In this document: positions 1 to 63,229 of the stretch, piece by piece
Position numbering within the stretch: position 1 is the stretch's first letter
Layout: the number at the start of each line of letters is the position of its first letter
Assembly (NCBI RefSeq): GCF_000013405.1
Contig: NC_007759.1
Span: 558,001 to 622,000, forward strand
Reading direction: 5' to 3'
Length of the DNA stretch: 64,000 nucleotides
Source of the DNA: Syntrophus aciditrophicus SB
Lineage (GTDB): Bacteria; Desulfobacterota; Syntrophia; Syntrophales; Syntrophaceae
Program-made: the position numbers and the translations under genes
Notes under the pieces: model-generated
Told to the model about the DNA's origin: nothing
What the model saw: the letters and a program-made list of their open reading frames with translations, nothing else
The model's database searches: none

Positions 1-129
1 GCGACCGCGATTTCCGTAACCGCCGAGCGGGACAGGACGCAGAACATCAACCGGCTGAAGCTCCTGGTGGAGGTGACCCCGGCCTCCGGGGAGCCCGTGG
101 AATTTTCGGCCTTCGTAACCGTGGTGTGA
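1..129 (+). CDS. Phage gp46-like baseplate protein, C-terminal fragment
   Basis: An open frame runs in from the left edge and ends at a TGA at 127-129, giving 42 C-terminal residues (ends EFSAFVTVV). It lies 10 bp before the baseplate J gene. In Mu-like phages the gene directly before gp47 is gp46, and the short beta-rich end with an ERD...INRLKLLVEV stretch fits that family. The identification rests mainly on gene order because only the tail of the protein is visible. The start is outside the window. Confidence 0.5.
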   Translation, partial: ATAISVTAERDRTQNINRLKLLVEVTPASGEPVEFSAFVTVV

Positions 130-139
130 GGACTTTTAA

Positions 140-1132
140 ATGAATTTTCAACGCGATTTCAATGATCTTTTGAACGCCCTGCTTACGGACTGGCGAAACC
201 AGTTCCCTGATGCCGACCTCTCCCAGGGGAGCCTGATTTACATGAAGTCCGCCTGCCTCGCCTCCGCCCTGTGGGGCCTTTACAAGTATCAGGAATGGAT
301 CTCGAAACAGATTTTTCCCGATACGGCGGAAACGAAATACCTGGAGCATCACGCCTGGGTGCGGGGTCTCTCCCGGCGTTCCGGAGAAACGGACGAGGAG
401 CTGCTGGCGCGACTGCTGGAATACATCCGCCGGCCTCCGGCGGGCGGAAATAAATATGACTACCAGAAATGGGCGCTGGAAATCGACAACGTGGCGAATG
501 CCTGGTGCATCCCTCTGAGTCAGGGACCGGGTACGGTGGACGTGATCATTGCCGCCGACGAAACAGTCACGGGTTCGGAAATCCCCAGCTCCCATGCCCT
601 GACGGGGACAACCACGGCAATTACGGAAAACAAACTGGTGGACGGCGCCGCTGATTTTATGGCCACCGGCGACGGCGGACCGGTCCGGATCGGCGACATC
701 GCCGTCAATGACGACACCGGCGGCCAGGCAGTAATTACAGCAGTGGACAACGCCACCCAGTTGACTCTGGATACGGACATTTTCAGCTCAATCGGCCAGT
801 CCTACACCCTGAAGTCCCTGACGGCGCAGGTTGGAGAATACATCGACGACGTGCGGCCCGTGACGGTTTCCATCGTCCGTATCCTGCCGCCGGCGGTAAC
901 CCTCCAGGATGTCACAATGACCGTCACCGGAACCGTGAACAAAGAGGCTATCGCATCCGCAATCACATCCCTTTTGCGCAGCCTGGTTCCCGGGCAGACC
1001 CTGTATCTCAGCCGGCTGATCGCCATCGCCATTCAGGAGGGAGCGACCAATGCGTCGATATCCGCGCCGGCTGCCGACATGTCCCCCGGCCCGTACGAAA
1101 TGCTCAGGCCGGGAACGATAACCGTATCATAA
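140..1132 (+). CDS. Baseplate J / gp47 family phage tail protein
   Basis: This 330-aa protein matches the baseplate J (Mu gp47) family, which forms the wedge-like part of contractile tail baseplates. Evidence is the N-terminal helical region with DLSQGSLIYM, a middle RRPPAGGNKYDYQKWAL segment typical of the family, a Thr/Gly-rich insertion near residues 140-230, and the C-terminal PGPYEMLRPGTITVS block. The ATG at 140 follows GAGGAC. It is 12 bp from the next tail gene and clearly in one late operon with it. Length is close to the Mu type. It belongs to a prophage or tail-like particle whose head genes would lie to the left of the window. Confidence 0.9.
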   Translation: MNFQRDFNDLLNALLTDWRNQFPDADLSQGSLIYMKSACLASALWGLYKYQEWISKQIFPDTAETKYLEHHAWVRGLSRRSGETDEELLARLLEYIRRPPAGGNKYDYQKWALEIDNVANAWCIPLSQGPGTVDVIIAADETVTGSEIPSSHALTGTTTAITENKLVDGAADFMATGDGGPVRIGDIAVNDDTGGQAVITAVDNATQLTLDTDIFSSIGQSYTLKSLTAQVGEYIDDVRPVTVSIVRILPPAVTLQDVTMTVTGTVNKEAIASAITSLLRSLVPGQTLYLSRLIAIAIQEGATNASISAPAADMSPGPYEMLRPGTITVS

Positions 1133-1144
1133 TGAGGCTGAACA

Positions 1145-1693
1145 ATGACCCATGAAGAGGTCCTGAATCTCCTGTTCCCCGTTCGATTGACGGGGGTGCA
1201 TGCGAAGGACACGGCCAGGGAAGGCGCGGCCCTGGATGACGTGCAGATCTCGGCGGAGCGGCTCCTGACAGAAATGTTCCCCGATGTGGCCCATAGCCTG
1301 TTATCGGACTGGGAGCGGATCTGTGCCCTGATCCCCGATGAAGACGCTCCCCTGCAAGCCCGCCGCAACGCCGTTCTGAAAAAACTGAGGGAGATCGGCG
1401 GATTGTCGCGCTCTTATTTCATCGACCTGGCTTCTTCCTACGGCTGGATCATCGCCATCGATGAACTGCTGCCTTTCATGGCGGGCTGGGGTCGCTGCGG
1501 CGATCCGCTCTATGAGGAGCAGGTCCGCTGGATCTGGCGGGTCAATGTCTCGGGCCAGGCTGCCTATTCGTTCCGGGCAGGATCATCCGCCGCCGGAGAA
1601 CGTCTTTCCTGGTGGACACCCAACATAGAGCTGGAAACCCTTCTGGAGGAGCTGAAACCAGCCCATACGGTCGTGATCTTCAACTATGCATAG
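1145..1693 (+). CDS. DUF2313 (YmfQ/gp48-like) phage tail protein
   Basis: This 182-aa protein has the organisation of the DUF2313/YmfQ family (Mu gp48 position), a baseplate component lying between the J protein and the tail fibre. Diagnostic blocks are SAERLLTEMFPDVA, LLSDWERICALIPDEDAPLQARR and the C-terminal LEELKPAHTVVIFNY. It follows baseplate J by 12 bp and precedes the tail fibre by 67 bp, the standard Mu-like order 47-48-49. No anomalies are seen in length or motifs. Confidence 0.88.
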   Translation: MTHEEVLNLLFPVRLTGVHAKDTAREGAALDDVQISAERLLTEMFPDVAHSLLSDWERICALIPDEDAPLQARRNAVLKKLREIGGLSRSYFIDLASSYGWIIAIDELLPFMAGWGRCGDPLYEEQVRWIWRVNVSGQAAYSFRAGSSAAGERLSWWTPNIELETLLEELKPAHTVVIFNYA

Positions 1694-1760
1694 AGTGACG
1701 GAAACGCAAAACCCGGTGCTGCAGTTATTATTGAACACTATTGAACAATAAGGAGGAATT

Positions 1761-2915
1761 ATGGCCAAAACAAATTTTGTGGACGGCAATCCCGCCGAGC
1801 AAATCGAAGGGACGATCGTCACCGCGGCGTTCCTCAACGCCCTGAACAACCACCGTCACCGGGGCCTGGCCGAGGACGGCGACGGCGCAATCGACTATGC
1901 CGCCGACACCGGATCGGCAGATGCATACGCGATAGCCCTGTCTCCGGCCCTGGCAGCCCATGTGACTGGAATGCCGATATCGTTTAAGGCGGCCAATGCC
2001 AACACGGGAGCGGCAACCCTCAATGTCGACGGGCTGGGCGCGGTTGCCGTTAAGAAAAAGGGCGGCGTGACACTCGTCGCCGGTGACATACCGGTCGATG
2101 GAATAGCAGTGGTTGCCTATGATGGCACCTGTTATCAACTGCTCAATCCGGCCTCAAGCTCATTGAAACAGATCCAATCCATCGCCGCATCGGTAGGCTC
2201 CAACGCCCTGTCGCTGACCTACAACGGCGGCACTTTGGATTTCAGGAACGCCACATTGGCCGTCGGCGCTCCCGTGACAGGCGTGGATGTATCCACAATT
2301 TCCCTTACTGTTCCTTCCGGGGCCACTTTGGGAACGGTTAACGCGATCCAGGCCATGCTTGCCCTGGTAGTCCTTTACAATGGAGGCAGTCCTGCTCTCG
2401 GTGTCGTCAATATGGGTGGCAGTGTAAATCTCGATGAAACCACCTTATTGTCCACTACGGCAATCAGCGACGCCGCTGATTCCGCTGCTGTTGTTTATTC
2501 AACCAACGCGATCACCAACAGTCCTTTTAGAGTAGTTGGCTTCATTAACATCACGGAAGCGACGGCAGGAGCTTGGGCCACGGCTCCTACACTGGTCCAG
2601 GGACATGGCGGTCAGGCAATGGCAGCAATGCAGTCGCTTGGATATGGCCAGACCTGGCAGAATGTAACTGCAAGCAGGTCGGTGAATACGACCTATTACA
2701 ACACGACTTCACGCCCGATTATGCTGTCCGTCACATCGAGTGGAGGCTCTCCAACTTTGACGATGGAGTTATATATCAACGGAGAGTTGATGCAGCGACC
2801 ATCGGTATCTGGCACTGGCGTAACAACTCAAATGTTCGTATCAGCAATTATTCCATCGGGAGCAAGTTATAAAGTTGCGGCCGGGGGGGTGGCATATTGG
2901 CTTGAATTAAGATGA
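1761..2915 (+). CDS. Phage tail fibre / receptor-binding protein
   Basis: This 384-aa protein begins with a short conserved segment (NFVDGNPAEQIEGTIVTAAF, then LNNHRHRGLAEDG) typical of tail-fibre N-termini that dock on the baseplate. It continues with low-complexity Gly/Ala/Thr/Val beta-repeat sequence. It is preceded by a strong AAGGAGG ribosome site at 1750. Its place after gp47 and gp48 fits the fibre gene. The C-terminal half shows no family I recognise, as expected for a host-range domain. The call rests on position, N-terminal motif and composition. Confidence 0.72.
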   Translation: MAKTNFVDGNPAEQIEGTIVTAAFLNALNNHRHRGLAEDGDGAIDYAADTGSADAYAIALSPALAAHVTGMPISFKAANANTGAATLNVDGLGAVAVKKKGGVTLVAGDIPVDGIAVVAYDGTCYQLLNPASSSLKQIQSIAASVGSNALSLTYNGGTLDFRNATLAVGAPVTGVDVSTISLTVPSGATLGTVNAIQAMLALVVLYNGGSPALGVVNMGGSVNLDETTLLSTTAISDAADSAAVVYSTNAITNSPFRVVGFINITEATAGAWATAPTLVQGHGGQAMAAMQSLGYGQTWQNVTASRSVNTTYYNTTSRPIMLSVTSSGGSPTLTMELYINGELMQRPSVSGTGVTTQMFVSAIIPSGASYKVAAGGVAYWLELR

Positions 2916-2929
2916 GAGGAGGAGAATAC

Positions 2930-3415
2930 ATGCCATATTATAAAGATAAAAATAATAATATTCACTTTCTGGATAATGAAAAATTTGAACAACTATTGCC
3001 GTCAGGGTGCTTAAAAATCACAGATATTGAAGCAAACGCAATCCAGAACCCGCCGTTGACCCTTGATCAGGCCAAAGCGAACAAACTCACTGATCTGGCA
3101 AATTATCGCTATGAAAAAGAGTGCGGAGGGACGACGGTCTCTGGTATGGAAATCAAGACCGACCGGGAAAGTCAGGCCAAAATCAGCGGCGCTGTGGCTC
3201 TTGCCATCCAAATCCCAACCATGACCTTCAATTGGAAGTCCAAGAAAGGATTCGTGGCTCTGGATAAAACTCAGATCACGGCCATCGGTCAAGCCGTCGG
3301 CGTGTTTGTTCAAGCTTGTTATACCAACGAGATGGCTCATGCGAAAGCCATTGAAGCCTTGACGACCGTGGCGGCTATCGAGGCATACGACATCACGACC
3401 GGCTGGCCGGGATAG
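2930..3415 (+). CDS. DUF4376-type phage tail accessory protein
   Basis: This 161-aa protein has the DUF4376-like pattern near LDQAKANKLTDLANYRYEKE and the spaced TAIGQAVGVFVQACYTNEM block, found in proteins encoded directly after tail fibres. An upstream ATG at 2912 overlaps the fibre stop (ATGA), but GGAGGAG at 2918-2924 is spaced for the ATG at 2930, so I use that start. Its likely role is fibre assembly or attachment, which is inference. The gene is more AT-rich at its start than the fibre gene. Its last 23 bp overlap the convergent acyltransferase gene. Confidence 0.7.
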   Translation: MPYYKDKNNNIHFLDNEKFEQLLPSGCLKITDIEANAIQNPPLTLDQAKANKLTDLANYRYEKECGGTTVSGMEIKTDRESQAKISGAVALAIQIPTMTFNWKSKKGFVALDKTQITAIGQAVGVFVQACYTNEMAHAKAIEALTTVAAIEAYDITTGWPG

Positions 3416-4382
3416 CTCGATTGAGTAAATACAGAATATTAGCTTTTAACGATTTTCTGGAAGTCCTGTGCCGTAAGATGGACACATTTTCTTCAATATA
3501 AATGTGCCATATAATGGCGATTACCCACGATCCGATAAGGATTCCAAGAGAGCAGAGGAAAGTCCCATTAATGGCTATGCCTGTATGTCGTAAAAACTCG
3601 ATAAAAATAGTGTGAAGCAGATAGCATGAATAAGATGCGTCACCCATTAACATAATTGCTCGTGGTTTCAAATCGGCGCAGGAATTCGATGCGAGGATTG
3701 CCGCCATAAAAAGAGACGGGACCGCAAAAACAGGATTGACAGCATAAAGTGTGGCTGCAACGTATGCTGAAAGGGAAACTGGAAACGTCCAAAAAGGCAA
3801 GCGAAGCGTGGTGTATTTTGATTTTATCCATTCGGAAATATACCAGATAGCTATGCCGAAAACGAAATACTTTACGTAGCCGTGTGTATAATAATAGAGA
3901 ATTGCCTTATTGCCGGTAATGTATGGCAGGCCGCCCATTAAGGCAAGTATAATCGCCCCAGCTATAATCGGAGCCTTGGATTGATTGATTATAATTGACA
4001 GTGTAAAGACCGCGTAAAAATACATCTCCAGATTGAGTGTCCATCCAACGCCGAGCACAGGGAAAAGGCCTGCTATTGAGGCGTGAGGAATAAAAAATGC
4101 GCTTAATAGTGTGTGTTCAAGTGGCCAGTATGTCCACATCGTAAAGATGGTGAGCAATGCTGCCATTGATACCCAATAGTTCGGGACGATACGCCAGATT
4201 CGATCACGTGCGAAATCTAATGCGCTACGGTCGCTGATCTTGCACATAAGATAACCAGAGAGCACAAAAAAAAGTGCTACACCATGAAACTCGGTATGTA
4301 CGCCAGCAATGACAGCATTAGTGTGATAAACGACAACTCCGGATGCCGCAAAAGCTCTTAATATTTGAAGATTTCCAATCAT
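3393..4382 (-). CDS. Acyltransferase 3 family membrane protein (OafA-like)
   Basis: This 329-aa polytopic inner-membrane protein has about ten hydrophobic segments. It starts with the acyltransferase-3 signature LQILRAFAASGVVVYH (R and H are the conserved pair) and continues with GVALFFVLSGYLM, GVGWTLNLEMYFY and a late SYSCYLLHTIF. Family members transfer acetyl or other acyl groups to O-antigen or other surface glycans. It is convergent with the tail module, overlapping it by 23 bp, and is AT-richer than the core genes. Sitting at the end of a phage tail region, it fits a lysogenic-conversion gene that alters the phage receptor. That role is inferred. Confidence 0.85.
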   Translation of the reverse strand: MIGNLQILRAFAASGVVVYHTNAVIAGVHTEFHGVALFFVLSGYLMCKISDRSALDFARDRIWRIVPNYWVSMAALLTIFTMWTYWPLEHTLLSAFFIPHASIAGLFPVLGVGWTLNLEMYFYAVFTLSIIINQSKAPIIAGAIILALMGGLPYITGNKAILYYYTHGYVKYFVFGIAIWYISEWIKSKYTTLRLPFWTFPVSLSAYVAATLYAVNPVFAVPSLFMAAILASNSCADLKPRAIMLMGDASYSCYLLHTIFIEFLRHTGIAINGTFLCSLGILIGSWVIAIIWHIYIEENVSILRHRTSRKSLKANILYLLNRAIPASRS

Positions 4383-4763
4383 AAAGACTATCCTCAGAGA
4401 ACAATTAAAACAGATAGAATGGTGTAAGGACGATCCGGGAGTTTGCCAGAAGAATCTTCAAAAGTCAATTGAAGCCCTTGGAATTATTTCCCCAAAGCGT
4501 AGACAATTGTAGACAAATTAAAAGGATTTACACTTGTAACCCTATGATAGGTGACGTGCGATTCGAACGGCTTTATTAAAACCATGTAAACATCATAAAT
4601 AGCCGGTAGAGCTAATAAAAAAAACGAGTGAACGAGGAGCTGCTGAATATGAATTTCACACCTAAAAAAAGTTGATAAAAAATGCTTTAAAAATGTGCCC
4701 AAAAAAGGCCAATTACACCTAATTTAAAATGAGTATAATTGGCTCAAAAAATCAAAAAATCGT

Positions 4764-4805
4764 GTCGCAAACTAAAAGTAAAACAGTCGCAAAATAAAAG
4801 TAAAA
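4764..4805. repeat. Direct repeat pair, 22-bp period
   Basis: Two copies of GTCGCAAA(C/A)TAAAAGTAAAA, at 4764-4783 and 4786-4805, match at 19 of 20 positions and start 22 bp apart, about two helical turns. That phasing suits a protein-binding site, for example for an integrase, excisionase or phage repressor. Function is not shown by the sequence alone. Confidence 0.6.
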
Positions 4806-4947
4806 TGACAAAATTTCTACAAGCCACGATCTCACCCTGAGACGATAACCGGCATATTTATCCTCCTTAAGAGGATTGTTCCAATGAAGGGTTTATTAGT
4901 TTTCAGCAGTTATGCAGGACTAAGGAAAAGGGCGAAAAAATTCAGAA

Positions 4948-4980
4948 GTGGTAAAATAGCGGTAAAAATATGGTGTAAAA
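4948..4980. repeat. Triplet GGTAAAA repeats, putative integrase arm sites near tRNA-Phe
   Basis: Three units begin at 4948, 4959 and 4970 (GTGGTAAAA, GCGGTAAAA, ATGGTGTAAAA), spaced 11 bp. Read on the minus strand they give TTTTAC(A)CC units just beyond the tRNA-Phe terminator. This is the same order and spacing as the TTTACCC repeats beyond tRNA-Ala at 30869-30891. They are candidate arm-type sites of a tyrosine integrase related to the one at 61743-63008. Confidence 0.45.
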
Positions 4981-4985
4981 GAAAA

Positions 4986-5015
4986 AAGGACTTAACCAAA
5001 TCTGGCTAAGTCCTT
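4986..5015 (-). terminator. Rho-independent terminator of tRNA-Phe
   Basis: AAGGACTTA (4986-4994) pairs perfectly with TAAGTCCTT (5007-5015). On the minus strand the hairpin is followed by a run of T residues. It lies 8 bp beyond the CCA end of tRNA-Phe. Confidence 0.8.
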
Positions 5016-5023
5016 GATTTAAA

Positions 5024-5099
5024 TGGTGGGTCAGGGCGGAATTGAACCGCCGACACTCGGATTTTCAGTCCGATGCTCTACCGACTGAGCTACCGACCC
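5024..5099 (-). tRNA. tRNA-Phe (GAA)
   Basis: This is a 76-nt cloverleaf on the minus strand. Acceptor stem GGGTCGG pairs with CTGACCC (one G-T). The D-loop is AGCTCAGTCGGTAGAGC. The anticodon stem-loop CGGACTGAAAATCCG places GAA at the anticodon. The T-arm carries GGTTCAATTCC and CCA is encoded. A terminator follows at once. The 3' end faces the phage-like island on the left, so it may be that island's attachment site. Confidence 0.96.
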
Positions 5100-30736: not shown

Positions 30737-30819
<83 letters not shown>

Positions 30820-30821
30820 CA

Positions 30822-30854
30822 GGGACTTAGGCCAGCTTGACTTAAGTCCCTTTT
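30822..30854 (+). terminator. Rho-independent terminator of tRNA-Ala supplied by the element
   Basis: GGGACTTA (30822-30829) pairs with TAAGTCCC (30843-30850), followed by TTTTCTTTTA. It lies inside the element, so integration replaced the original terminator, which is now at 63232-63259. Its sequence closely resembles the tRNA-Phe terminator at 4986-5015. Confidence 0.8.
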
Positions 30855-30868
30855 CTTTTACTTCTTTA

Positions 30869-30891
30869 TTTTACCCATTCTTTACCCATTT
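30869..30891. repeat. Left copy of 23-bp element-end repeat (putative integrase arm sites)
   Basis: Two TTTACCCATT-like units spaced 11 bp. The whole 23 bp, starting TTTTACCCATTC, recurs exactly at 63037-63059, and seven of the next eight bases also agree apart from transitions or one A/T change. They lie about 50 bp inside attL. Confidence 0.75.
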
Positions 30892-61742: not shown

Positions 61743-63008
61743 TCAAGTCTCTTTTGAAAAATTCACAACCTGCCCGGTCTGACTTTCGGCCATTCCAGGG
61801 ATTTTCTTCTCAAGGCCAACCATCGCCTGCCTAATGCTGTCGGCAGCAGGATGTGAATATCTGGTTGTCATTTTGAAATCAGCATGGCCCAGTATTTCTT
61901 TGACCAGAAAGAGATTTGTTCCGTTGTTCACCAACCATGATGCATGGGTATGGCGTAAACTGTGGAAGGTTATTTTGTCGCGGGGATCGACAACCCCTTT
62001 GTTTAATCCCAGGTCAGCAATAGCCCGGTCAAAGGTAGCTGATACCGAAAAAAGCCGCTTTCCTTTTCTGTCTGGAAAAATAAGATCATCGGCTTTACCT
62101 TCAGGCATGGCCTCAAATAGCGCCTTGACTCCTTCAGTCATAAATACCGTTCGATCTTTTCCGGATTTTGTGTTCCTGAAGATAATGCTTCCATCTTTCA
62201 GATTTATTCTCCGCCATGTCAGCCCGGCCAGCTCGCCGAACCGTGCGCCAGTATAGAGGCTGAGATATGCCAGTTCATAAAGCTGCCGGCTCTTGTTCTT
62301 TAGGTAGGCAAGCAGGTCATTTGCTTCCTGTGGGGACAGAAAACGTTTCTTCTGGTTGTCGATGCGTGGGAGTTTAACGTCTCTGGTCGGGCAATCCCTC
62401 TGGACGATCTTATCCTTTCGAGCGCGGTTCCATACTTGAGAGACAATGGCGAAGGCGTAATGGATAGTTCGAACGGCCTTCCCGCTATCTTCCATGTTCT
62501 TCTTGATCTTCTTAAGATGAAAATCTGTAAGGTCATTGATTCTTAACTTGCCTATGAGAGGGCAAATCCATTTGTCGTAGATGAATTGTTCAACATCCTT
62601 GCTTTTCTTGTGGGCCATGTCTGGGAAATAGGTGTCTTTGAAGTATTTTCCAAAGGTGATGGATTCTTTTTCCTTTTTCTCTACCTCGGCTTGCTTCGCT
62701 TCTTCCTGCTTCCTTGCCTTTTCGCGCATGTCAGAAATTGTTTTCACTTCCTGATGACCCTTCGCGTTTCCCATCAGTTCAGCCCGTAAGGTTGCTGCCT
62801 TTAATTCATTCCAATGTTTGCCGTCTTTTGGGTCTAGCTCTGAGGCCCAACCGACAACATGTTCATACCTTTTTCCGTGAGCCTGATAACGGATCACGTA
62901 GCAGCGATCCTTTTTGTATGGTCCGCTCTCTCCCTCTCTATATTTCTTAGTGGGATGAACATAATACCGAACCCCTTTTTGTTCTGAATGTATCCACTTG
63001 ATTGCCAT
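61743..63008 (-). CDS. Tyrosine site-specific integrase
   Basis: A 421-aa integrase. It has an N-terminal arm-binding region (residues 1-80), a coiled SAM-like core-binding domain (residues 115-200) and a catalytic domain with R in TGARFGELAGLTW, HSLRHTHASW (H-x-x-R), GHADFKMTTRYSHP (H and nucleophile Y). It lies 188 bp from attR and is transcribed inward. It would recombine the tRNA-Ala 3' end. The 23-bp TTTACCC repeat at 63037-63059 lies immediately upstream and may overlap its promoter, suggesting autoregulation. Confidence 0.95.
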   Translation of the reverse strand: MAIKWIHSEQKGVRYYVHPTKKYREGESGPYKKDRCYVIRYQAHGKRYEHVVGWASELDPKDGKHWNELKAATLRAELMGNAKGHQEVKTISDMREKARKQEEAKQAEVEKKEKESITFGKYFKDTYFPDMAHKKSKDVEQFIYDKWICPLIGKLRINDLTDFHLKKIKKNMEDSGKAVRTIHYAFAIVSQVWNRARKDKIVQRDCPTRDVKLPRIDNQKKRFLSPQEANDLLAYLKNKSRQLYELAYLSLYTGARFGELAGLTWRRINLKDGSIIFRNTKSGKDRTVFMTEGVKALFEAMPEGKADDLIFPDRKGKRLFSVSATFDRAIADLGLNKGVVDPRDKITFHSLRHTHASWLVNNGTNLFLVKEILGHADFKMTTRYSHPAADSIRQAMVGLEKKIPGMAESQTGQVVNFSKET

Positions 63009-63036: not shown

Positions 63037-63059
63037 TTTTACCCATTCTTTACCCATTT
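63037..63059. repeat. Right copy of the 23-bp element-end repeat
   Basis: Identical to 30869-30891 and in the same orientation. It lies 29 bp upstream of the integrase start and 137 bp inside attR. Confidence 0.75.
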
Positions 63060-63195: not shown

Positions 63196-63229
63196 GGGGT
63201 TCGACTCCCCTCAGCTCCACCAGAAAAAT
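63196..63229 (+). repeat. attR: partial tRNA-Ala
   Basis: Exact 34-bp copy of 30786-30819. To its left, GGCATTCAGGAGGCC resembles the anticodon and variable arm of tRNA-Ala with two changes and one missing base, so the element carries a drifted tRNA end. Confidence 0.88.

What the first reader, a model, noticed from the sequence alone, without database searches (positions are those of the whole stretch)
4948..5099. tRNA-Phe end has the same layout as the tRNA-Ala element end
Read on the minus strand, tRNA-Phe is followed by a GGACTTAG-CCAG-TTAAGTCC terminator, CTTTTAC and TTTTACC repeats 11 bp apart. Beyond tRNA-Ala come an almost matching terminator (GGGACTTAGGCCAG...TTAAGTCCC), CTTTTAC and TTTTACC repeats 11 bp apart. 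This suggests a second element of the same integrase family in tRNA-Phe, and would explain the phage tail genes on the left.
Basis: partly seen in the sequence, partly recalled or inferred. Interest (0 to 1): 0.58.

Follow-up and report, generated by a model that had tools for sequence, protein, structure and literature searches.

The report
Orphan island end beside tRNA-Phe
The sequence just past this tRNA-Phe gene is the left-over end of a genomic island whose integrase is gone, and the phage genes next to it belong to an unrelated Mu-like phage that inserted later or independently.

Summary
On the minus strand tRNA-Phe (5024-5099) is followed by a strong terminator (4986-5015) and an 11-bp-spaced repeat pair, TTTACCGCTATTTTACCAC (4948-4966). 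tRNA-Ala has the same layout, with both repeat pairs starting 57 bp past the tRNA. In the tRNA-Ala island the pair sits at both ends, beside the integrase and beside the tRNA, as integrase arm sites should. The Phe-type pair was sought in 155 relatives and in 84,980 species. It lies 57-72 bp past a tRNA (Phe, Leu, Gln, Thr) or just upstream of an integrase of the tRNA-Ala family; the only exception is one copy at a contig edge. No second tRNA-Phe 3' end and no matching integrase exist in the complete genome, so this is an orphan end. The tail genes belong to a 38.85-kb Mu-like prophage (MuA, MuB, TGT...ACA ends, 5-bp AAATT target duplication) ending 137 bp from the repeats. By-product: within this integrase family, arm-site sequence follows the N-terminal domain, not the catalytic domain, in two separate sets. 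Layout and principle are both in print; ordinary but cleanly resolved.

The parts
5024..5099 (-). tRNA-Phe (GAA), the target gene of the lost element; intact
   Evidence: ARAGORN, Rfam RF00005 74.5 bits
4986..5015 (-). intrinsic terminator hairpin, 13-bp stem, between tRNA end and arm sites
   Evidence: similar hairpins follow other tRNAs with and without arm sites
4948..4966 (-). pair of integrase arm-type sites, TTTACCGCTATTTTACCAC, 11 bp apart (orphan attL arm)
4816..4947 (.). remaining sequence between arm sites and Mu-like prophage; possible rest of the lost element; no convincing match in 155 relatives
4811..4815 (.). 5-bp target duplication AAATT of the Mu-like prophage (other copy at C1:523956-523960, L010:5956-5960)
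1..4810 (+). right part of a 38,850-bp Mu-like transposable prophage (C1:523961-562810): baseplate J, Mu gp48, tail fibre genes, an O-acetyltransferase gene on the minus strand, right end ...TGACA
30737..30812 (+). tRNA-Ala (GGC), target of the intact comparison island
30822..30850 (+). terminator at the tRNA-Ala island end
30870..30886 (+). arm-site pair at the tRNA end of the tRNA-Ala island, TTTACCCATTCTTTACC
63038..63054 (+). the same arm-site pair at the integrase end of the tRNA-Ala island
61743..63008 (-). tyrosine integrase of the tRNA-Ala island (421 aa)
   Evidence: PF00589 2.4e-31, phrog_1
63196..63222 (+). duplicated tRNA-Ala 3' end (27 of 27 bases), distal end of the tRNA-Ala island

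Best explanation
The junction is an orphan attL. An island whose tyrosine integrase belonged to the same family as the tRNA-Ala island's integrase once integrated at the 3' end of tRNA-Phe. Integration left the tRNA gene whole and put the island's own first bases behind it: a short spacer, a terminator that ends the tRNA transcript, and 57 bp past the tRNA a pair of arm-type sites one helical turn apart, which the integrase's N-terminal domain would bind in the intasome. Later the integrase gene and the distal end with the displaced tRNA-Phe fragment were lost by an imprecise event; precise excision would have removed the arm sites too. Separately, a Mu-like phage transposed into the remaining sequence 137 bp away. 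Shown here: arm-pair position and identity, their occurrence at both ends of related islands, absence of a second tRNA end and of a matching integrase, and the Mu ends with target duplication. Inferred: that the pairs are bound by integrase, the order of events, and the kind of event that removed the island.
For: The tRNA-Ala island has the pair at both ends plus a tRNA 3'-end duplication and an integrase. Pattern TTTACCGCTNTNTTACCNC in 155 genomes of the order: 8 places in 7 genomes, 0 in the reversed-pattern control; 6 lie past a tRNA (Phe x2, Gln x2, Leu x2), 1 is about 80 bp upstream of a family integrase, 1 is at a contig edge. Smithella D17 (G053) has the pair past tRNA-Leu on one contig and, on another, the integrase with the same pair and a 58-bp tRNA-Leu duplication. 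11-bp pairs stand upstream of 21 of 21 family integrases of the order and 46 of 54 further ones, against 2 of 75 control windows inside integrase genes. The pair follows the integrase, not the tRNA: tRNA-Phe of G036 carries TTGTGATAAA pairs and an integrase 65% identical to the one this genome keeps at a tRNA-Leu with the same pairs. Congeners G001-G003 have other pairs or none past tRNA-Phe, so it is not a vertically kept flank. Mu-like prophage: MuA phrog_310 4.5e-93, MuB phrog_296 8.9e-50, Mu gp48 2.6e-38, AAATT at both sides.
Against: No binding was tested. The second arm copy differs by one base from most relatives (ACCAC, not ACCGC). A weight matrix trained on 17 arm pairs of other family members put the two tRNA-Ala ends first and second in 202 kb but did not list the Phe pair among its best 15. 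A strict 8-mer repeat test caught 3 of 47 tRNA flanks of this genome and missed Phe, whose exact repeat is 7 bases. No integrase of the family with a tRNA-Phe fragment was found. The sequence between the arms and the prophage has no convincing relative (best E 8.6e-4 over 23 bases), so the lost island's content is unknown.
Confidence: 0.86

Rival explanations
1. A complete second element of the same integrase family still lies left of tRNA-Phe and includes the phage tail genes.
For: The junction does look like an element end.
Against: No tRNA-Phe 3'-end copy in 202 kb or genome-wide; of 8 tyrosine recombinase genes in the genome only the tRNA-Ala one is of the family; the tail genes are inside a Mu-like prophage with its own ends and target duplication.
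Confidence: 0.04
2. The terminator and repeats are simply the native 3' flank of tRNA-Phe, kept by descent, and the likeness to tRNA-Ala is chance or a shared terminator style.
For: GGACTTA-type terminators follow tRNA-Phe in congeners too and tRNA-Lys here.
Against: The 11-bp pair differs or is missing in all three congeners, yet the same pair follows tRNA-Gln, -Leu and -Thr elsewhere and stands beside family integrases.
Confidence: 0.06
3. The arm pair was left when a later element replaced or tandem-integrated at tRNA-Phe, so the end is the remnant of a two-element array rather than of a single decayed island.
For: Such an arrangement exists in this genome: the displaced tRNA-Thr fragment at C1:2136017 is followed by a family-type arm pair while the intact tRNA-Thr at C1:2104613 carries another integrase with other arms.
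Against: At tRNA-Phe the arm pair is next to the intact gene, not next to a fragment, so no later island now separates them.
Confidence: 0.1

Closest known systems
attP layout of Cluster K1 mycobacteriophages (CrimD and others; PMC3203893, passages read)
   Same: tRNA core, then a stem-loop terminator, then a pair of 11-bp arm-type repeats; arm consensus differences matched to changes in the integrase N-terminus
   Different: There a working phage attP with arms on both sides, in inverted orientation; here only one end remains, with no integrase
Islander tRNA islands (PMC4383910, passages read)
   Same: intact tRNA gene kept, element on its 3' side
   Different: Islander requires a displaced tRNA fragment and an integrase; both are missing here, so its rules as described would not list this site
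Arm-binding-domain tyrosine recombinases (Smyshlyaev et al. 2021, PMC8138268, passages read) and Oenococcus IntF/IntB prophages (PMC8074189, passages read)
   Same: N-terminal arm-binding domain; different N-termini go with different arm repeats
   Different: Here the correlation is counted across a family that targets several tRNAs, and used to assign an orphan end
Bacteriophage Mu-like transposable prophages
   Same: MuA/MuB homologues, TGT...ACA ends, 5-bp target duplication, Mu-type baseplate genes
   Different: Nothing notable; it is only the neighbour of the finding

Membership tests
tRNA-integrated island (tyrosine integrase type) | intact tRNA gene at one end | tested here: met
tRNA-integrated island (tyrosine integrase type) | displaced 3' fragment of the same tRNA at the other end | tested here: not met
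   none in window, in 202 kb, or genome-wide at E<=10 beyond short chance matches and one other tRNA gene
tRNA-integrated island (tyrosine integrase type) | integrase gene inside | tested here: not met
   no PF00589 or family match within 438-563 kb
tRNA-integrated island (tyrosine integrase type) | arm-type repeat pair near the tRNA, shared with related integrases | tested here: met
tRNA-integrated island (tyrosine integrase type) | integrase binding and recombination at the site | not testable with these tools
   needs protein-DNA binding and excision assays
Mu-like transposable prophage (left neighbour) | MuA-type transposase and MuB-type ATPase | tested here: met
   phrog_310 and phrog_296; rve, Mu-transpos_C
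Mu-like transposable prophage (left neighbour) | inverted TGT...ACA ends with 5-bp target duplication | tested here: met
Mu-like transposable prophage (left neighbour) | Mu-type virion genes | tested here: met

The most novel reading that the evidence does not exclude
In this integrase family the N-terminal arm-binding domain and its 11-bp-spaced arm pair behave as one exchangeable module, while the catalytic half goes with the tRNA targeted. Arm sequence could then be predicted from the N-terminal domain, and orphan ends such as the tRNA-Phe one could be traced to a type of lost integrase: here one with an N-terminal domain like Smithella D17's, not like the tRNA-Ala integrase next door.
Probability: 0.7. 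Interest if true: 0.5.

Novelty: new member of a known kind. Interest (0 to 1): 0.36.

Why it matters
It shows how to recognise an island that has lost both its integrase and its distal end. The arm pair stays behind the tRNA as a signature, and island finders that need a tRNA fragment and an integrase would pass it by. It also separates two neighbouring mobile elements that a reader would naturally merge. The by-product, arm sites that follow the integrase N-terminal domain across different tRNA targets, gives a testable rule for integrase site choice.

Tried and rejected
An 8-mer exact test missed Phe. The extra TTTACC-N5-TTTACC sites at C1:2794198 and C1:72899 were fetched as possible relocated distal ends and rejected: no tRNA-Phe fragment near them, no tRNA within 6 kb, and no integrase among the reading frames seen there; one lies just before a reading frame that looks (recalled) like a dGTPase. 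Viral-contig hits of the 19-mer (3) have no tRNA and no integrase match in the stretches held and were set aside. The sequence between arms and prophage gave no convincing relative. The shared terminator was rejected as proof of kinship. The idea that the arm type follows the integrase tree was rejected: the two TTTACCGC integrases sit in different clades but have N-terminal domains 66% identical against 37% for the rest. The second half of the rule written down in note ([YH]xYGVGW goes with TT[AG]) could not be tested in the new set: the one such protein noticed there (L156) lacks upstream DNA.

Full report
WHERE. The window is C1:558001-622000 of a one-contig genome of 3,179,300 bases. That length is the one I recall for Syntrophus aciditrophicus SB; no call names it.

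THE OBSERVATION. Read on the minus strand, tRNA-Phe (5024-5099) is followed by a hairpin at 4986-5015 (13-bp stem, -18.7 kcal/mol, 0 of 200 shuffles as good), CTTTTAC, and two TTTTACC copies 11 bp apart. tRNA-Ala has the same order. In both, the first TTTACC starts 57 bp past the tRNA end.

WHAT THE REPEAT PAIR IS. The tRNA-Ala island is complete enough to serve as key: intact tRNA-Ala, a 27-base exact copy of its 3' end at 63196-63222, and a tyrosine integrase at 61743-63008. The pair TTTACCCATTCTTTACC occurs at both ends: past the tRNA (30870) and upstream of the integrase (63038). That is the expected place of integrase arm-type sites.

The Phe version was then sought elsewhere. TTTACCGCTNTNTTACCNC occurs at 8 places in 7 of 155 genomes of the order, with none for the reversed pattern. 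Six of the 8 lie past tRNA genes (Phe in G000 and G009, Gln in G079 and G149, Leu in G099 and G053), one stands upstream of a family integrase (G053), and one is at a contig edge. In one genome each of 84,980 species, the exact 22-mer occurs 9 times. Six lie past a tRNA (Thr, Leu x2, Gln x3), 2 stand beside family integrases (38% and 34% identical to the tRNA-Ala one), and 1 is at a contig edge. In Smithella D17 (G053) one contig has tRNA-Leu plus the pair; another has the integrase, the same pair and a 58-bp exact tRNA-Leu duplication. The distance from tRNA end to pair is 57-59 bp in 6 of 9 cases and 65, 71 and 72 in the others; for one case (L138) the script stopped at an earlier TTTACC, and I count 58 from the printed sequence.

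The pair goes with the integrase, not the tRNA. tRNA-Phe in G036 has TTGTGATAAA-type pairs and an integrase 65% identical to the one this genome holds beside tRNA-Leu (C1:2182968), which has the same pairs. The three congeners have a different pair past tRNA-Phe (G001, G003) or none (G002).

WHAT IS MISSING. A second tRNA-Phe 3' end is absent from 438-640 kb and from the whole genome (one other tRNA gene and three matches of 14-23 bases). PF00589 finds 8 genes, read; only the tRNA-Ala integrase belongs to the family (next best 28% identical). So this is an orphan end. G009, with the same pair past tRNA-Phe, also had no family integrase at E <= 1e-40, but it is a draft in 160 contigs.

THE PHAGE GENES. 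The tail genes at the left edge are the right end of a Mu-like prophage of 38,850 bp, C1:523961-562810 (window ..4810). It has a MuA-type transposase (phrog_310, 4.5e-93), a MuB-type ATPase (phrog_296, 8.9e-50), portal, sheath and baseplate genes, Mu gp48, ends TGTGAGATTACTTTTAGTATGCGA and TGTCATTTTACTTTTATTTTGCGA (read inward), and AAATT directly outside both. It needs no tRNA-Phe element to explain it, and the junction lies outside it. Left of it are ordinary chromosomal genes and an ISL3-type transposase that interrupts a PAS-domain gene.

THE TERMINATOR. It is not diagnostic. The genome has similar hairpins past tRNA-Lys without a pair, G002 has one past tRNA-Phe without a pair, and two ends with the pair have no obvious hairpin (by eye). 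A terminator between core and arm pair is already described for Cluster K1 mycobacteriophage attP sites (PMC3203893, passages).

BY-PRODUCT: ARM SITES FOLLOW THE N-TERMINAL DOMAIN. In 22 family integrases (20 of the order, plus Smithella D17 and UBA5623; near-duplicate L106 dropped, and L126, L128 and the six below 38% identity, L129-L134, not used), arm 8-mer likeness correlates with N-terminal identity (r 0.69) and not with the catalytic part (r 0.03); 0 of 2000 permutations reached the partial correlation. In the tree of 25 integrases the tRNA target, where a fragment is recognisable, tends to follow the clade. I wrote a rule down before fetching more: K after IR[YF] goes with CCGCT arms, Q or R does not. 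In a further set (54 loci with upstream DNA that I chose; 46 with an 11-bp pair; 43 after dropping near-duplicates) the partial correlation with the N-terminal part was 0.40 (0 of 2000) and with the catalytic part -0.02 (1172 of 2000). CCGC arms occurred in 8 of 13 with K, 0 of 18 with Q/R, 0 of 12 not classed by the script's pattern; Fisher p 1.6e-4 for K against Q/R. A few of the 12 unclassed carry a Q (and one a K) that the pattern missed, none with CCGC. Relatedness was handled only by dropping near-duplicates. Spacing control: 11 bp in 46 of 54 and 21 of 21, 10 bp in 21 of 54 and 8 of 21, other spacings 0-3; windows inside the integrase genes 2 of 75. That different N-termini go with different arm repeats is in print for single phage groups (PMC3203893, PMC8074189, passages), and the arm-binding domain itself is well described (PMC8138268, passages). 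Five literature searches on these terms showed no family-wide count in their listings; the library is open-access only.

VERDICT. Real observation, half-right interpretation, ordinary kind of thing: an orphan island end.

Noticed in passing
window 30737-63222: The tRNA-Ala island carries a type III-B (Cmr) CRISPR-Cas system: Cas6, Cmr1, Cas10/Cmr2, Cmr3, further RAMPs, Cmr6, CARF/HEPN and CARF effectors, and Cas1.
   Followed up: partly
L086:9499-19002 (G009:C36): In G009 the same type of arm pair past tRNA-Phe is followed by an exonuclease and a type I-E CRISPR-Cas operon, cas3 to cas2.
   Followed up: partly
C1:2104613 and C1:2136017 (L018, L013): tRNA-Thr has one island with its own arm type; its displaced fragment is followed by a CCC-type arm pair of the tRNA-Ala family, while the genome's only family integrase is the tRNA-Ala one: a second orphan end in a tandem arrangement.
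   Followed up: partly
L010:5961 to window 4810: Complete-looking 38.85-kb Mu-like prophage with a minus-strand O-acetyltransferase gene near its right end (window 3396-4382).
   Followed up: partly
L010:3193-4398: An ISL3-family transposase gene splits a PAS/LuxR-type regulator gene.
   Followed up: no
L139 (Smithella D17 contig_116), about 1800-1945: Besides the pair, three inverted copies of AGCGGTAAAG stand between integrase and arm pair, perhaps extra arm sites or an operator.
   Followed up: no
integrase loci L154-L261: 21 of 54 upstream regions also show a 10-bp-spaced repeat pair besides or overlapping the 11-bp one.
   Followed up: no
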